A stretch of 34,815 nt of DNA, from positions 1-34,815 of the forward strand of contig CATMQD010000008.1 in NCBI GenBank assembly GCA_950073045.1, read 5' to 3'. Each line of letters begins with the position of its first letter. Within the stretch, counting starts at the first letter, position 1. The DNA comes from an uncultured Flavobacteriales bacterium. GTDB lineage: Bacteria; Bacteroidota; Bacteroidia; Flavobacteriales; Schleiferiaceae. The translations under genes and the position numbers were made by a program. The notes beneath the pieces were generated by a model. It was not told the DNA's origin and did not search any database. It saw only the letters and a program-made list of their open reading frames with translations. Shown here in pieces: positions 1 through 34,815 of the stretch.

Positions 1-190
1 TGGCTCAGGTTATATTTTTAGAGCTTATTATGCTCTTCCTCCAATGAGCAGGGCTGATGGTACTCCAGTAAATGCAGTATTTGGATTTACGAATATGCTT
101 GTCAAATTAATAGAAGATTATAGTCAAGAAAAATTAGTAGTAATTTTTGATGCCGCAAGAGAAAATTTTAGAAATAAGATTTATCCTGGT
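1..190 (+). other. N-terminal fragment of a DNA polymerase I 5'-3' exonuclease domain (alphaproteobacterial-like), probably foreign to the rest of the contig
   Basis: Frame open from base 2: GSGYIFRAYYALPPMSRADGTPVNAVFGFTNMLVKLIEDYSQEKLVVIFDAARENFRNKIYP, matching the PolA N-terminal pattern (DGSGxIFRAxxALPPxxRxDGTPVxAVxGFTNML...VIFDAARxxFRNxIYPxYKANR). Hand-counted GC of bases 1-180 is 58/180 (32%) versus 74/180 (41%) for bases 181-360. Confidence 0.8.
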
Positions 191-343
191 GCGAAAGCTC
201 AGAATCCTGATCCTCGTACTACCGATGATAAGTTTTTAATGGAAGTGGTTGCCGGTGGCGATCATAGTAACGAAGATATCATGGCCCTTCTTAAAGAGAC
301 AGGTGCTATTGAAGTAAGTGTAAATTCCGCTGAGCATGCTTAA
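184..343 (+). CDS. actD: C-terminal end of ActD (DUF3341), alternative complex III membrane subunit; 5' part missing
   Basis: PGAKAQNPDPRTTDDKFLMEVVAGGDHSNEDIMALLKETGAIEVS resembles the DUF3341 C-terminus (NPDPRTTDDKF...). It directly precedes and overlaps actE, as in ACIII operons. Confidence 0.75.
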
Positions 344-956
344 AAAAGGTACTATCAATAAATTATTTGCTTTTGCAGTAGCCGGACTAGTATTGGTTGC
401 TTGTAAAAAAGATGAAAACCATCGCGGATGGCAGTATATGCCCGACATGTATGATGGTCCCGCTTTGGAAGCTTATTCGCCAACAGACTTGTTTAGCGAC
501 AGTACTTCGGCTCGTAAACCAGTAGAGGGAACTATTCCACGTGGTTTTATGTCCTACACCGATTATGGTGCAGATGCCGCGGGTTATGATTCTGCTCGTA
601 TGCATTTAGAAATGCCATCTTCTATCATGGCTGATGAGACGACCATGGCTGAAGCTAAAGAGCTGTACACGATTTTCTGTTCTCACTGTCATGGTGATAA
701 AGGAGCAGGCCAAGGTGTATTAGTGAAGAACGAGAAATTTCTCGGTGTGCCTTCTTATGCCGATCGCGACATTAATTATGGAACCATCTTTCACGTAGTA
801 ACCTACGGTAAAGGGGTTATGGGTTCCCATGCTTCTCAGGTTACTCCGGAAGAGCGTTGGAAATTGGCACTGTATGTTATGAAGTTGAAGGAAGACCTTA
901 CTGCTCCTGCAGAAGAGCAAAGCTCCGAAGAAGCTGAAGAAACAACAGAAAGCTGA
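336..956 (+). CDS. actE: Alternative complex III cytochrome c lipoprotein subunit ActE
   Basis: 206 aa, lipobox LVAC, single CxxCH heme motif (FCSHCHGDKGAGQG), downstream Met region (GVMGSHASQV). Located between actD and actF. Confidence 0.9.
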   Translation: MLKKGTINKLFAFAVAGLVLVACKKDENHRGWQYMPDMYDGPALEAYSPTDLFSDSTSARKPVEGTIPRGFMSYTDYGADAAGYDSARMHLEMPSSIMADETTMAEAKELYTIFCSHCHGDKGAGQGVLVKNEKFLGVPSYADRDINYGTIFHVVTYGKGVMGSHASQVTPEERWKLALYVMKLKEDLTAPAEEQSSEEAEETTES

Positions 957-991
957 TAATTAAGCATTAACAATATTTAACGACCGCAGAG

Positions 992-2440
992 ATGTTTGAA
1001 TTTTCAAGTCGCTTAAAAACAATTTCATACGTACTGATTTTAATCGGTGCGATTTCCGTGGGCTTTAGCTTCCTTTCTGGAGGTGGCCACCACGATGACT
1101 CTCATGAGGGCGAACAAGCAGCCATGCACGATGAGCATGCTACTGATGCTGAACACGCTGAGCATGGTGATGCTCACCCTAGTCACGGACATGCTGCCGC
1201 TCATGGCCATGGTCATGATGCCATGCCAGACGCCGACTATTTCACCTACCACAAAGGTGCTTCTCGTGCCATTCCTGAGAATAACCATTTCTATAGCTCA
1301 CCAACCGAACACGATGCTGAGCATGTTCACCATCAAATGGAGAACAAGCCTTGGTCTAACTTATTAGTAAATAGCTTCTGGGCATTAGCCTTAGGATTAG
1401 GAGCCTTATTCTTCATGGCTGTTCAGTATGCCGCGCAAGTAGGCTGGTCGGTTGTTGTTCTACGTATCCTTGAAGCTATGGCTAGCTTTATTTGGATTCC
1501 AGGTGTAATCATTTTAATAATCATAATCACGGGCTGGTTCCATATCGGTGGAAACCATGTTTACCACTGGATGGCCGATGGTATTATGGTAGAAGGTAGT
1601 GCGAACTACGATAGCATTATTGCTGGTAAGCAAGCCTACCTAAATGGTACTTTCTTTACCCTTCGCGCGGTAATCTACCTACTTGGATGGATTGGTGCTG
1701 CCTATATGCTTCGCAAGATGAGTTTGCGCTACAATCAACCCGGAGTTGATTATATGCAGAACTGGAAGAAGATGCGTAACCTAGGTGCAGGTTTCTTAGT
1801 ATTCTTTGCTGTTACTTCATCTACTTCGGCTTGGGATTGGATCATGAGTATCGATACCCACTGGTTTAGCACCTTATTTGGATGGTATGTATTTGCAACC
1901 ATGTTCGTTTCTGCCCTTACAGCATTAATGATGATTGTACTTTACCTTAAAGGGAAGGGTAAATTGCAAGAGGTTAATGACAGCCATATCCACGATATTG
2001 CGAAATTCATGTTTGCCTTCTCCATTTTCTGGACTTACCTATGGTTCTCTCAGTTTATGTTGATCTGGTATTCGAATATCCCAGAAGAGGTAACTTATTA
2101 TATGGCTCGCTTCGGGGAGTACAAAGGAATCTTCTTTACGATGGTAGCCTTGAACTTCCTGTTCCCAGTATTAGTATTAATGAGTCGTGATTCTAAGCGT
2201 AATCGTGGATTTGTATTCACAGCTGGTATTGTGATCTTATTCGGTCACTGGCTGGATATCTTCATCATGGTAATGCCTGGAACAGTAGGATCTAACTGGA
2301 GCCTTGGTTTAATTCAATTTGGAACCCTATTAGGCTTTGTAGGTTTATTTATTAATGTGGTATTCCGCAGTTTGAGCAAAGCTCCACTGATGCCGGAAAA
2401 TCACCCAATGTATGTGGAGAGCAAGCTCTTTCATCAATAA
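992..2440 (+). CDS. actF: Quinol:cytochrome c oxidoreductase quinone-binding subunit 2 (ActF)
   Basis: 482 aa polytopic membrane protein with NrfD/ActC-ActF-like segments (SAWDWIMSIDTHWFSTLFGWYVFA). His-rich region between the first two TM helices; operon position between actE and coxB. Confidence 0.9.
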   Translation: MFEFSSRLKTISYVLILIGAISVGFSFLSGGGHHDDSHEGEQAAMHDEHATDAEHAEHGDAHPSHGHAAAHGHGHDAMPDADYFTYHKGASRAIPENNHFYSSPTEHDAEHVHHQMENKPWSNLLVNSFWALALGLGALFFMAVQYAAQVGWSVVVLRILEAMASFIWIPGVIILIIIITGWFHIGGNHVYHWMADGIMVEGSANYDSIIAGKQAYLNGTFFTLRAVIYLLGWIGAAYMLRKMSLRYNQPGVDYMQNWKKMRNLGAGFLVFFAVTSSTSAWDWIMSIDTHWFSTLFGWYVFATMFVSALTALMMIVLYLKGKGKLQEVNDSHIHDIAKFMFAFSIFWTYLWFSQFMLIWYSNIPEEVTYYMARFGEYKGIFFTMVALNFLFPVLVLMSRDSKRNRGFVFTAGIVILFGHWLDIFIMVMPGTVGSNWSLGLIQFGTLLGFVGLFINVVFRSLSKAPLMPENHPMYVESKLFHQ

Positions 2441-2462
2441 CTTTTGAAACAATAGGATTTAC

Positions 2463-3497
2463 ATGGAGACTTTGTTAGTAATTGTAATTGCACTCCTCGC
2501 AGTTGCCGCCCTTACACAAGCTGTTCGAATCTTCGAGATTTCCTCTCAGATTAAGGATTCCGATAGTGATGTAAAAGTTGATGATCGCGATAATAATACG
2601 CAGGGCTGGTTAATGCTCTTGTTCTTAATATTCTTCTTCGGGGCATTCGCTTGGATGTTATGGGAGTATATGGAACTTACTTTACCGCAGTCGGCCTCTG
2701 AGCATGGTAAGGATGTAGACAACCTTTGGAATATTTCCATGGGTGTAATCATCTTAGCTTTCTTAGTTACTCAACCCCTACTATTTGGTTTTGCCTTCCG
2801 CTTCCGCGGAAATAAAAATCGCAAGGCCACATATATGGAGCACAATAATAAATTGGAGCTCTTCTGGACTGGTATTCCAGCCGTTGTTCTAGCAGGTTTG
2901 ATTCTTTACGGATTAACCACTTGGAGCAATGTTATGAATCCTGATAATGAGCAGGAGCCTATGGTAGTGGAGATTTATGCTAAACAATTTGGATGGCAAG
3001 CTCGTTATGCCGGTGGTGATAACGAGTTGGGTTACGCAAATGTACGCTTAGTAGAAGGTGTTAATACTTTGGGTGTTGATGCCAATGACGAAGCTTCTGC
3101 AAATGATATTGTAACTGGAGAGTTGCACTTACCAAAAGGACGTCCAGTATTATTTAAATTCCGTTCACAGGATGTTATTCACTCTGCTTATATGCCGCAC
3201 TTCCGCATGCAGATGAACTGTGTACCTGGAACTCAAACCCAATTCCAAATTACCCCGAGCTTAACTACAGCTGAGATGCGTCAGGATCCAGAGATCGTAG
3301 CTAAAGTGGCCCGTGTAAATGAGCTTCGTGAAGCTCGTGGAGAGGACCCATGGGAATTTGATTATGTACTCCTTTGCAACAAAATCTGCGGATCTGCACA
3401 CTACAACATGCAAATGAAAGTAGTGGTGCAAACCGAAGAAGAGTTCGATAAATGGATGAAGGAACAGCAAACTTTTGCTGAAATGATGGCAGACTAA
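2463..3497 (+). CDS. coxB: Cytochrome c oxidase subunit II
   Basis: Complete CuA ligand set: DVIHSAYMPHFRMQ plus CNKICGSAHYNM (C-x3-C-x3-H-x2-M). Confidence 0.95.
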   Translation: METLLVIVIALLAVAALTQAVRIFEISSQIKDSDSDVKVDDRDNNTQGWLMLLFLIFFFGAFAWMLWEYMELTLPQSASEHGKDVDNLWNISMGVIILAFLVTQPLLFGFAFRFRGNKNRKATYMEHNNKLELFWTGIPAVVLAGLILYGLTTWSNVMNPDNEQEPMVVEIYAKQFGWQARYAGGDNELGYANVRLVEGVNTLGVDANDEASANDIVTGELHLPKGRPVLFKFRSQDVIHSAYMPHFRMQMNCVPGTQTQFQITPSLTTAEMRQDPEIVAKVARVNELREARGEDPWEFDYVLLCNKICGSAHYNMQMKVVVQTEEEFDKWMKEQQTFAEMMAD

Positions 3498-3536
3498 TTA
3501 GGAAAGAGACAAAAGAACTGAAATCGAAAGAAGCAC

Positions 3537-5297
3537 ATGGAAGCACACGCACACCACAAAGAAACTTTCATAACTAAGTACGTATTCAGCACCGATCATA
3601 AAATGATCGCGAAGCAATTCTTGATCACTGGTATGATCATGGGAATTATTGGCGTTGGAATGTCGCTTTTATTCCGCTTGCAACTAGCATGGCCAGATAA
3701 AGAATGGCCAATCCTAGAAGCATTACTGGGGAAATGGGGAACCGACGGGATTATGGACCCTAATATTTACCTAGCATTAGTTACGATTCACGGTACCATC
3801 ATGGTATTCTTCGTACTTACTGCAGGTTTAAGTGGTACCTTCTCAAACTTGTTAATTCCACTACAGATTGGTGCCCGTGATATGGCATCTGGATTTATCA
3901 ATATGTTATCCTACTGGTTCTTCTTTGCTTCCAGTGTGGTTATGGTAATTTCCCTATTTGTAGAAAATGGACCAGCTTCCGCTGGATGGACGGTTTATCC
4001 ACCACTGAGTGCTCTGCCACAGGCGGTGCCTGGTTCAGGTATGGGTATGACCTTGTGGTTAGTGTCAATGTCACTATTTATCGTATCCTCACTTTTAGGT
4101 GCACTTAATTACATTGTTACCGTATTAAACCTACGTACAAAGGGAATGAGCATGACTCGTCTACCTTTAACAATTTGGGCCTTCTTTGTAACTGCAATTC
4201 TCGGGGTACTTTCATTCCCAGTATTGTTCTCAGCAGCTTTATTATTAATCTTCGATCGTAGCTTTGGAACCAGCTTCTACCTATCCGATATTTTAGTAGC
4301 GGGTGAATTACTTAGTAATCAAGGTGGTAGTCCAATTTTGTACCAGCATTTATTCTGGTTCTTAGGTCACCCTGAGGTATATATTATCCTTTTGCCAGCC
4401 CTTGGTATTAGCTCAGAGGTTATTTCAACCAATTCACGTAAACCAATTTTTGGTTACCGTGCGATGGTAGGTTCCATTATGGCGATTGCTTTCTTAAGTT
4501 TTATCGTTTGGGGTCACCACATGTTCGTTACCGGTATGAATCCATTCCTAGGTTCGGTATTTACTTTTACCACCCTATTGATTGCGATTCCATCTGCCGT
4601 AAAGGCCTTTAACTACATTACTACTCTATGGAAAGGTAATCTTCAGTTTACTCCAGGGATGATGTTCTCTATTGGCTTAGTATCTACTTTCATTACTGGT
4701 GGTCTTACCGGATTGATCTTAGGGGATAGTGCATTGGATATTAATGTTCATGATACTTACTTTGTTGTAGCTCACTTCCATATTGTAATGGGTCTATCAG
4801 CAATCTTTGGTTTATTCGCCGGGGTTTATCATTGGTTCCCAAAATTGTTTGGTCGTCGCATGAACAAGAACTTAGGCTTTATCCATTTTTGGGTAACCTT
4901 TATTGCCGCTTACGGTGTGTTCTTCCCAATGCACTTCTTAGGAATGGCTGGTTTACCACGTCGATACTACACCAATACTGCATTCCCAATGTTTGATGAT
5001 TTAGCAGATATCAATGTATTGGTATCCTATTTCGCAATCATCGGTGGTATTGCGCAGGTAATTTTCATTTACAACTTCTTCTACAGTGCTTTACGCGGTA
5101 AGAAGTCGGAGCAAAACCCATGGCGTTCTAACACATTGGAGTGGACTACTCCAGTAGAGCATATTCATGGCAACTGGCCTGGAGAAATCCCAGAGGTACA
5201 TCGTTGGCCTTATGATTACTCTAAGCCTGGAGCAGAAGAGGATTTTGTGCCTCAAACTGTTCCTATGACTGAGGAAGAAATGGCCAGTGGTCATTAA
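3537..5297 (+). CDS. coxA: Cytochrome c oxidase subunit I (heme-copper oxidase)
   Basis: 586 aa; WFLGHPEVYIILLPALGISSEVI, WGHHMFVTGMNP and DTYFVVAHFHIVMG motifs. Confidence 0.97.
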   Translation: MEAHAHHKETFITKYVFSTDHKMIAKQFLITGMIMGIIGVGMSLLFRLQLAWPDKEWPILEALLGKWGTDGIMDPNIYLALVTIHGTIMVFFVLTAGLSGTFSNLLIPLQIGARDMASGFINMLSYWFFFASSVVMVISLFVENGPASAGWTVYPPLSALPQAVPGSGMGMTLWLVSMSLFIVSSLLGALNYIVTVLNLRTKGMSMTRLPLTIWAFFVTAILGVLSFPVLFSAALLLIFDRSFGTSFYLSDILVAGELLSNQGGSPILYQHLFWFLGHPEVYIILLPALGISSEVISTNSRKPIFGYRAMVGSIMAIAFLSFIVWGHHMFVTGMNPFLGSVFTFTTLLIAIPSAVKAFNYITTLWKGNLQFTPGMMFSIGLVSTFITGGLTGLILGDSALDINVHDTYFVVAHFHIVMGLSAIFGLFAGVYHWFPKLFGRRMNKNLGFIHFWVTFIAAYGVFFPMHFLGMAGLPRRYYTNTAFPMFDDLADINVLVSYFAIIGGIAQVIFIYNFFYSALRGKKSEQNPWRSNTLEWTTPVEHIHGNWPGEIPEVHRWPYDYSKPGAEEDFVPQTVPMTEEEMASGH

Positions 5298-9179: not shown

Positions 9180-12100
9180 GATTCTCCATTAAATATTTCG
9201 CTTTCCCTGCGCTTGCCGCATTATTTCTGATTTACTCCTTTACCTATAGGAGAAATTTTGCTGAGGACCTAATCGATTACCAAGAGGATTCGGAATTAGG
9301 GAAATTAGTTCCCCCATCTGATACTAATGACCCCGATAGTGTTTTGCGCTATCCCTTTGATGGGGGTGAGTCTGGTGGAGTTTTTGGCAATGAGCCCTCC
9401 AATTTTAAAGAAGATGTAGTTTACGATGAAGAATCGGGAAACTACTTTGTGTACCGCACCTATGGTCGTTTTAGTGGAGCCCCACCGGTGGTAATGACCC
9501 CCAGCGAGTACCGCGATTATATTGCCGCTCAACAGGCCCAGGAATACTGGTCGGCAAGAAGTAAAAGCGATGATGCCCAAAAGGCAGAAGGTCGTGACCC
9601 AGCCAGTTCACTTATTCCGCAGATTACCATTAATAGCGACAACTTTGCTAAAATCTTTGGATCGAATACCATTGATATCCGTCCCCAAGGTTTTGCCGAA
9701 TTAACCTTTGGTGGTCGATTCCAGAAAATTGATAATCCGATTATTCCCGAACGAAATCGGAATGTGTTCACCTTCAACTTCGATCAACGCATTCAAATGA
9801 ATGTGAATGGAAGTATCGGAGAAAAGCTTAAGCTGAATGTGAACTATGATACGGAAGCCACCTTCGCTTTCGAAAATCAGGTGAAAACCGAGTTTACCGG
9901 CTTTGAAGATGATATCATTAAAAAAATTGAGCTTGGTAATGTAAACCTCCCGCTAAACTCATCTCTAATTACTGGTGCTCAAAGCTTATTTGGGGTAAAA
10001 GGACAATTCCAGTTTGGAAAGTTGATGTTAACTGGGGTTTTCTCCGAACAACGTAGTCAAACTTCTTCCATAAACATCCAGGGCGGCGCCACCACCACCG
10101 AGTTTGAGATTTGGGGGGATGAGTACGAGGCCAACCGTCACTACTTCCTTTCACATTATTTCCGTGATAACTACGAGCAGTTTTTAGAGAACTCTCCAAT
10201 TATCACCTCACCTGTACAAATTACCAAGGTTGAAGTTTGGGTTACCAATAACCGCCAGAATACTCAGGATACTCGAAATATTGTGGCAATGCTCGATTTA
10301 GGGGAGCGCCAAAATAGAGCATATCGCACTAATGACAAACCTGGTGTAGATATCTTCCCGGGTGATAAAGGAGGCGAATTTCCCGACAACCTGAGCAACC
10401 AGTTAGATCCAGACAATTTAGTGCAATCCTATCCTGGAGTTAGGGATATCTCACAAGTAAACTCTGCTTTAACGGGAGCCGGTTTTGAAGAGGCCACCGA
10501 ATTCGTGGAATTAGCAAATGCCCGAAAGCTTAACCCTAACGAGTTTAACTTCCATCCTCAATTGGGATATATCACCCTGAATACTGCTTTAAATCAGGAT
10601 GAAGTACTGGCCGTTGCCTTCCAATACACCGCAGGCGGACAAACCTTCCAAGTAGGTGAGTTTAGTACCGATGGGGTAAGTCCACCAAATAACCTGGTGG
10701 TGAAAATGCTAAAGAGCTTTATCCTTGATGTTCGAGTTCCCAACTGGGACTTGATGATGAAAAACGTTTATTCATTGAGTGCTTTTCAAGTAGGCTCAGA
10801 AGATTTCCGTTTACAGGTACTTTATCAAAATGACGAAACCGGTACACCGGTGCCATTTTTACCAGAATCTTCCCTGCGTTCAGAACTACTCTTACGAGTG
10901 ATGGAGTTGGATCGCTTGAATCAAAATAATGACGACCAAGCGGATGGTTTCTTTGACTTTATTCCCAATCAAACCATTTATCCCCAAAACGGTAGAATTT
11001 TCTTCCCAGTCTTGGAGCCCTTCGGTTCTAACTTAGCGGAGAAATTAGCCGATGATGATGAACGGGATCGCTTTGTTTTCCAACAGCTCTACGATTCCAC
11101 ACGATTTGTTGCTCAAAATGAAACGCGCCTCAATAAGTATTTAATTAAGGGGCAATTTAAATCCTCATCCAGCAGTGAAATTCAACTGAATGCCTTTAAT
11201 ATCCCTCCCGGGTCGGTGCAAGTTACGGCAGGCGGTACCCGATTAATTGAAGGTCAGGATTACCGTGTAGATTACAATTTAGGTCGGGTTACCATTTTAA
11301 ATGAAGGAATTCTTAATTCTGGTGTTCCCATTAAGGTAGATTTTGAAAACAACGCCCTTTTCAATTTCCAAACTAAGACTTTCATGGGTTTAAATGCGGA
11401 ATACCGCTTTAATGAGAATTTCAATTTGGGAGCTACCATGGTGCACTTAAATGAGCGGCCGTTAACCCAAAAAGTGAATATTGGAGAGGAGCCCATTTCG
11501 AACACCATTGTTGGTTTAAACGGTAACTATTCGAAGGATGCGCCCTACTTAACTCGATTTGTGGATGCGATTCCGTTTATCGACACCAAAGAAAAATCCA
11601 ATATCTTAATTAGTGGTGAGGTTGCCCAAATGATTCCTGGTAGTCCGCGAGGTATCGAGATTAATGGAGAGCAAACCACTTTCCTAGATGATTTCGAATC
11701 GAGTCAAACTACAATTGATATTCGCAATCCATCGGCCTGGCGACTAGCCTCCACACCTGCAGGTCAACCCGATTTATTCCCAGAAGGAAGTGAAAATAGT
11801 GTGGCTTACGGTTTTAATCGTGCCCGCTTGGCTTGGTATACCATCGATCCTCTTTTTCATAATGATGAATCTCGTACGCCGGATAATATTCGGAATAATA
11901 AGGATCTACAATCGACCAATGATGTGCGTGAGGTTTTAGTGGATGAAGTATTTCCAAATTTGGAATTAGATAATAGTCAGCCACGGAATATTGCAACCCT
12001 CGATTTAGCCTTCTATCCGCGTGAGCGTGGTCCATACAATTATGATGTGGAGCCCACGGCATTTTCTGCAGGTATCAACCAAGATGGTAGTTTAAGAGAT

Positions 12101-33980: not shown

Positions 33981-34815
33981 ATGGATATCTATTTCATTCT
34001 AGTAATCGCCCTATTAATTCTTGCTGTTGGTGACTTGGTAGTGGGTGTAAGCAATGATGCTGTGAACTTCCTTACTTCGGCTATTGGCTCTCGGGTGGCA
34101 AGTCAGCGCACAATTTTAATTATCGCAGCCGCTGGCGTTTTTGCGGGCGCGGCCTTTTCTAGTGGAATGATGGAGGTTGCTCGAAAGGGAATCTTTAATC
34201 CAAGCTTTTTTAGTTACGCCGATGTAATGGTGGTTTTTATGGCAGTAATGATTACTGATATCATTCTGCTGGATGCTTTCAATAGCTTTGGAATGCCAAC
34301 TAGCACCACAGTTTCGATAGTATTTGAATTGCTCGGTGCCAGTGTTATGGTAGGCTGGTTAATGCTTCGCGATGGTCAGCACGCTGATATGAATCTCTTA
34401 GATGTAATAAATACTTCTAAAGCCAGTCAAATTATAGCCGGTATATTTCTGTCCATTGGCGTAGCCTTTTCTGTGGGGGCATTATCGCAATGGGTTTCTC
34501 GTTTGTGGTTTACCTTTAATATTCGTCGGGGAGTGAATAAGTACGGGGCCCTTTTTGCGGGGATTTGTATGACAATCATTATCTACTTCCTACTCATTAA
34601 AGGAATAAAAGGGGCCAATTTCGGGAAAGACGTAAATGCCTTTTTTAAGGAGCAAGCGATGATGATTGTAGCGGCCTCCTTTATAGGTAGTACCTTAATT
34701 CTTTGGCTGTTGCAAAAAACACTTTCGGTAAATCCATTAAAGGTGGTGGTTTTAACGGGTACCTTTTCCCTAGCTATGGCTTTCGCCGGAAACGATTTAG
34801 TGAACTTTATCGGTG
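33981..34815 (+). CDS. Inorganic phosphate transporter, PiT family (partial, runs off right edge)
   Basis: Absent from ORF track (no stop). Own translation: MDIYFILVIALLILAVGDLVVGVSNDAVNFLTSAIGSRVASQRTILIIAAAGVFAGAAFSSGMMEVARKGIFNP...FAGNDLVNFIG, with two PiT signature GxNDxxN-type repeats. Confidence 0.93.
   Translation, partial: MDIYFILVIALLILAVGDLVVGVSNDAVNFLTSAIGSRVASQRTILIIAAAGVFAGAAFSSGMMEVARKGIFNPSFFSYADVMVVFMAVMITDIILLDAFNSFGMPTSTTVSIVFELLGASVMVGWLMLRDGQHADMNLLDVINTSKASQIIAGIFLSIGVAFSVGALSQWVSRLWFTFNIRRGVNKYGALFAGICMTIIIYFLLIKGIKGANFGKDVNAFFKEQAMMIVAASFIGSTLILWLLQKTLSVNPLKVVVLTGTFSLAMAFAGNDLVNFIG

What the first reader, a model, noticed from the sequence alone, without database searches (positions are those of the whole stretch)
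1..343. In-frame chimera: PolA 5'-exonuclease N-terminus joined to the ActD C-terminus
One open frame reads as alphaproteobacterial-type PolA up to ...ARENFRNKIYP, where PolA would continue YKANRPPPPEDL. It then switches to ActD/DUF3341 sequence (PGAKAQNPDPRTTDDKFLMEV...). GC by hand count rises from 32% (1-180) to 41% (181-360). Both families plausibly share a P-G/D-x-K-A-like stretch at the junction (about 183-195), which suits microhomology-driven misassembly or chimera formation. ActD would lose its TM helices, so a functional fusion is unlikely. The first ~190 bp probably do not belong to this genome, and annotating 44..343 as one gene would be wrong.
Basis: partly seen in the sequence, partly recalled or inferred. 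Interest (0 to 1): 0.7.

Follow-up and report, generated by a model that had tools for sequence, protein, structure and literature searches.

The report
Mis-joined contig end: polA onto actD
The apparent fusion of a DNA polymerase I start with the end of a respiratory-complex gene is almost certainly an assembly error: about 170 bases from an unrelated marine alphaproteobacterium were glued onto the broken end of a Bacteroidota contig at a short stretch that both genes happen to share.

Summary
Observation confirmed. The open frame 2..343 matches 5'-3' exonuclease/PolA (residues 1-69, E 7.6e-20) and the C-terminus of ActD (residues 58-106, E 1e-7). It lies at base 1 of contig C8, so it is a contig end.

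From base 173 to 34813 the contig is collinear with two same-genus genomes in which ActD is intact. Bases 1..~172 match alphaproteobacterial polA only: marine single-cell genomes, up to 89% aa and 84% nt identity, about 30% after base 187. None of 59 other genomes of the family has the fusion. The genome has its own full-length polA on C71.

A same-genus actD and marine alphaproteobacterial polA genes share an exact 23-mer there, the longest match among 480 locus pairs: enough to merge them in a k=21 assembly graph.

actB, actC and the ActD N-terminus are missing from this assembly. Verdict: assembly artefact, no biological fusion.

The parts
1..172 (+). foreign fragment: internal piece of the 5'-3' exonuclease domain of an alphaproteobacterial polA (about codons 12-68 of a 913-codon frame in L033)
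   Evidence: up to 89% aa and 84% nt identity to marine Alphaproteobacteria single-cell genomes; 12-34% identity to actD relatives over 1-160
167..188 (+). junction: stretch shared by both genes (FRNKIYP codons), within which the switch of source cannot be placed further; best-fit cut 172-177
   Evidence: exact shared 23-mer CTTTAGAAATAAAATTTATCCAG between actD of G006 (L009) and polA of L035/L040 at the homologous position
173..343 (+). native 3' end of actD (alternative complex III subunit D), last ~58 codons; the N-terminal two thirds are missing
   Evidence: 100% aa identity over residues 56-113 to intact ActD in G001 and G005; DNA collinearity begins at base 173
336..956 (+). actE-like mono-haem cytochrome c subunit, next gene of the same operon
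   Evidence: Cytochrome_CBB3, E 1.9e-12; 86% aa identity to G005 and G001
992..5297 (+). rest of the native operon downstream of actE: 992-2440 probably actF, and two further frames (2463-3497, 3537-5297) that read as cytochrome c oxidase subunits II and I (assigned by eye from the translations)
   Evidence: translations; 82-94% aa identity and same order in G001 and G005

Best explanation
The first ~170 bases of the window are a misassembled tip. The true genome continues upstream from base ~173 into the N-terminal part of actD, then actC, actB and actA, as in its sister species. A metagenomic de Bruijn-graph assembly reached the FRNKIYP codons of actD, where the sequence is (nearly) identical over 21 bases or more to the same codons of polA from a co-occurring marine alphaproteobacterium. 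The walk stepped onto that polA path and stopped about 170 bases further at the contig end. The 113-codon open frame is an accident: both genes encode FRNKIYP, so crossing within those codons keeps the frame open. Shown here: two sources, location of the switch, intact operon in relatives, missing act genes and a contig break in this assembly, shared 23-mer between the two gene families. Inferred: the k-mer step itself, and the co-occurrence of the two organisms in one sample.
For: The window is the whole contig C8, base 1 being the contig end. Two Pfam families meet at residues 58-69. DNA collinearity with G005 (single-contig genome) and G001 begins at base 173 and runs to base 34813. Relatives have full-length ActD and never the fusion. 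The polA half is nearest to marine Alphaproteobacteria, while the genome's own PolA is full length on C71 and only 33% identical to the fragment. A 23-mer shared at the homologous position is the longest exact match over 480 locus pairs; away from this position the longest was 17. ActB, ActC and the ActD N-terminus are not found in G000, and the neighbouring upstream piece (nusA-infB) ends at the end of contig C102, so the assembly is broken exactly here. GC of 1-166 fits the donor gene (29-35%) and not the contig (42%).
Against: No raw reads, coverage or assembly graph were available. The donor's exact polA was not among the sequences searched (best about 84% nt identity over bases 1-187), so the 21+ base identity between this genome's actD and the true donor's polA is inferred from relatives. 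The native sequence of this genome just upstream of base 173 is unknown.
Confidence: 0.87

Rival explanations
1. A physical chimera: template switching or ligation during library PCR or whole-genome amplification joined the two molecules at the short shared stretch, and a few such reads extended the contig end.
For: The join sits in a ~20-base shared stretch, and the foreign part (~170 bases) is about the length of one short read.
Against: Such molecules are rare and a contig needs coverage; nothing here can tell it from a graph error, but a graph error needs no rare event.
Confidence: 0.11
2. A real gene fusion after horizontal transfer of a polA fragment into actD, giving a truncated or re-purposed protein.
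For: The frame stays open across the join.
Against: The exonuclease part is a fragment (7-75 of 164 profile positions) that begins at the contig end; ActD would lose about two thirds of its length; none of 59 other family genomes has it; ActB and ActC also vanish from the assembly at the same point, which a fusion does not predict; the open frame follows from the shared codons.
Confidence: 0.01
3. Contig C8 is correct and continues into a second polA locus of this organism, brought there by a genomic rearrangement.
For: None beyond continuity of the sequence.
Against: The fragment is 33% identical to the genome's own PolA and up to 89% identical to another phylum's; no other copy of this stretch was found in the genome, though the query covers only 62 residues of PolA.
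Confidence: 0.01

Closest known systems
Chimeric contigs from k-mer (de Bruijn) metagenome assembly
   Same: Two unrelated genomes joined at a short identical stretch. [quoted passage not shown]
   Different: Here the shared stretch is protein-coding in both genes and in the same frame, so the error passes for an open reading frame.
ActD, alternative complex III subunit D (Pfam PF11821)
   Same: Residues 56-113 are a normal ActD C-terminus, identical to two sister species.
   Different: The first ~two thirds are absent at the contig end.
DNA polymerase I, 5'-3' exonuclease N-terminal domain (PF02739)
   Same: Residues 1-62 are a normal piece of the domain, nearest marine Alphaproteobacteria.
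   Different: Only 62 residues, without the gene's start and without the remainder of the gene.

Membership tests
Assembly chimera at a shared k-mer | two parts with different nearest relatives | tested here: met
Assembly chimera at a shared k-mer | identical stretch of at least the smallest usual k (21) at the join | tested here: met
   23-mer between L009 and L035/L040 at the homologous position; shown in relatives, not in the two source genomes themselves
Assembly chimera at a shared k-mer | join absent from independent genomes | tested here: met
   none of 59 other family genomes; one search likewise
Assembly chimera at a shared k-mer | no single read across the join, or a coverage step there | not testable with these tools
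   no raw reads held
Genuine PolA-ActD fusion protein | recurrence in related genomes | tested here: not met
Genuine PolA-ActD fusion protein | complete domains on both sides | tested here: not met
   5_3_exonuc_N 7-75 of 164 positions; ActD 116-169 of 170 positions
ActD (PF11821) | score above the curated cut-off | tested here: met
   32.2 bits against a cut-off of 25.7
ActD (PF11821) | location between actC and actE | tested here: inconclusive
   actE follows at 336-956; the upstream side is cut off here but is actC in G001 and G005

The most novel reading that the evidence does not exclude
This one strain carries a real in-frame polA-actD join made by recombination at about 20 bases of microhomology with marine alphaproteobacterial DNA.
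Probability: 0.01. Interest if true: 0.45.

Novelty: not a real feature. Interest (0 to 1): 0.08.

Why it matters
It matters only for data quality. A gene call at 44..343 would enter databases as a PolA-ActD fusion, and the missing act genes could be read as loss of alternative complex III. The case shows neatly how a seven-residue motif shared by two unrelated proteins can produce an in-frame chimera that looks like an ordinary open frame.

Tried and rejected
Looked for the fragment in phage records (blastn) and, with bases 1-500, in plasmid records: no match. Virus contigs gave only 59% and 47% hits to the exonuclease half, so a phage polymerase source was dropped. Looked for the rest of ActD and for actB and actC elsewhere in the same genome: not found, so the contig cannot simply be re-joined; a positive control for those searches is that the same kind of search finds ActD and PolA in G000. 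Checked the other end of the contig for a similar foreign tip: none, it is collinear with relatives to base 34813. Checked the end of contig C102, the next piece upstream: it stops about 70 bases after the collinear infB match; those last bases have no match in the relatives and cannot be judged.

Full report
What is there. The window is contig C8 of an assembly of 348 contigs (96% complete, 2.6% contaminated), complete from base 1 to 34815. The frame 2..343 is open. Pfam finds the N-terminal 5'-3' exonuclease domain of PolA on residues 1-69 and the C-terminal end of ActD on residues 58-106. The two halves keep their family matches when scanned alone. NCBIfam supports the polA half, and the Protein Data Bank sequences support both (bacterial DNA polymerase I chains, and the alternative complex III subunit D chain 6btm_D).

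Native side. Six genomes of the same genus carry ActD in a 194-198-aa open frame, and in two of them (G001, G005) residues 56-113 of the window frame are matched with 100% identity. DNA alignment to these two genomes starts at window base 173 and follows the contig, in the same gene order, to base 34813. In G001 an actC-like frame precedes actD. In G005 the genes upstream are a multihaem/cytochrome c protein (actA), an iron-sulphur protein (actB) and an NrfD protein (actC), preceded by a large HYR/SprB-repeat protein, infB and nusA. In the window's own genome nusA-infB lie at the end of contig C102 (11,280 bases; the match ends at 11,210), and no ActB, ActC or ActD N-terminus is found. The assembly is therefore missing the interval that holds the act genes up to the start of actD (about 12 kb in G005), and C8 begins at the far side of that gap.

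Foreign side. The 62-residue exonuclease part has its best matches in uncultured marine Alphaproteobacteria single-cell genomes (up to 89% aa identity). DNA identity to the closest of them is 84% over 1-187 and about 31% over 188-343. In L033 the match lies in an intact 913-codon frame. GC of the homologous 187 bases in those genomes is 29-35%, against 33.7% for window 1-166 and 42.4% for the rest of the contig. The window's genome has its own full-length polA (934 codons, C71:6892-9696, TIGR00593 997 bits), only 33% identical to the fragment.

The junction. Position by position, polA relatives explain the window up to about 175 and actD relatives from about 173 on, with a best-fit cut at 172-177. 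ActD of the genus reads FF-FRNKIYP-GAKAQ and PolA reads EN-FRNKIYP-EYKAN, so both encode the same seven residues. ActD of G006 (L009) and polA of L035 and L040 share the exact 23-mer CTTTAGAAATAAAATTTATCCAG at precisely this position. This is the longest exact match among 480 pairs of actD and polA loci, and away from this position the longest was 17. A graph assembler with k=21, a usual smallest value (PMC8172020), can step from one gene to the other there, and because the codons are in phase the frame stays open.

Occurrence elsewhere. In the other 59 genomes of the family searched, the query's two halves hit separate places, PolA frames (mostly 860-1050 aa, some shorter) and ActD frames of about 185-207 aa; none spans both.

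Conclusion. The finding's observation is correct and its interpretation, a microhomology-driven chimera at a contig end, is supported, with the junction moved to the FRNKIYP codons. Bases 1-172 should be regarded as foreign and 173-343 annotated as a partial actD. Whether the join arose in the assembler or in the library cannot be told without reads; the former is the simpler.

Noticed in passing
L026 (G024), 910-2016, minus strand: In one genome of the same order ActD and the following cytochrome c subunit ActE read as one 368-aa frame, a possible natural ActD-ActE fusion (or a lost stop codon).
   Followed up: partly
G000:C102:11210-11280 (L127): The contig that carries nusA-infB stops about 70 bases past the collinear infB match, after a GC-rich hairpin followed by T (terminator-like), on the other side of the act gap; its last bases have no match in the sister genomes.
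   Followed up: partly
window 336-34814: Ordinary Bacteroidota-type gene order (actE, actF-like and cytochrome c oxidase-like genes, ruvB, QueG-like, ruvA, sprA, then further genes), collinear with two sister genomes.
   Followed up: partly
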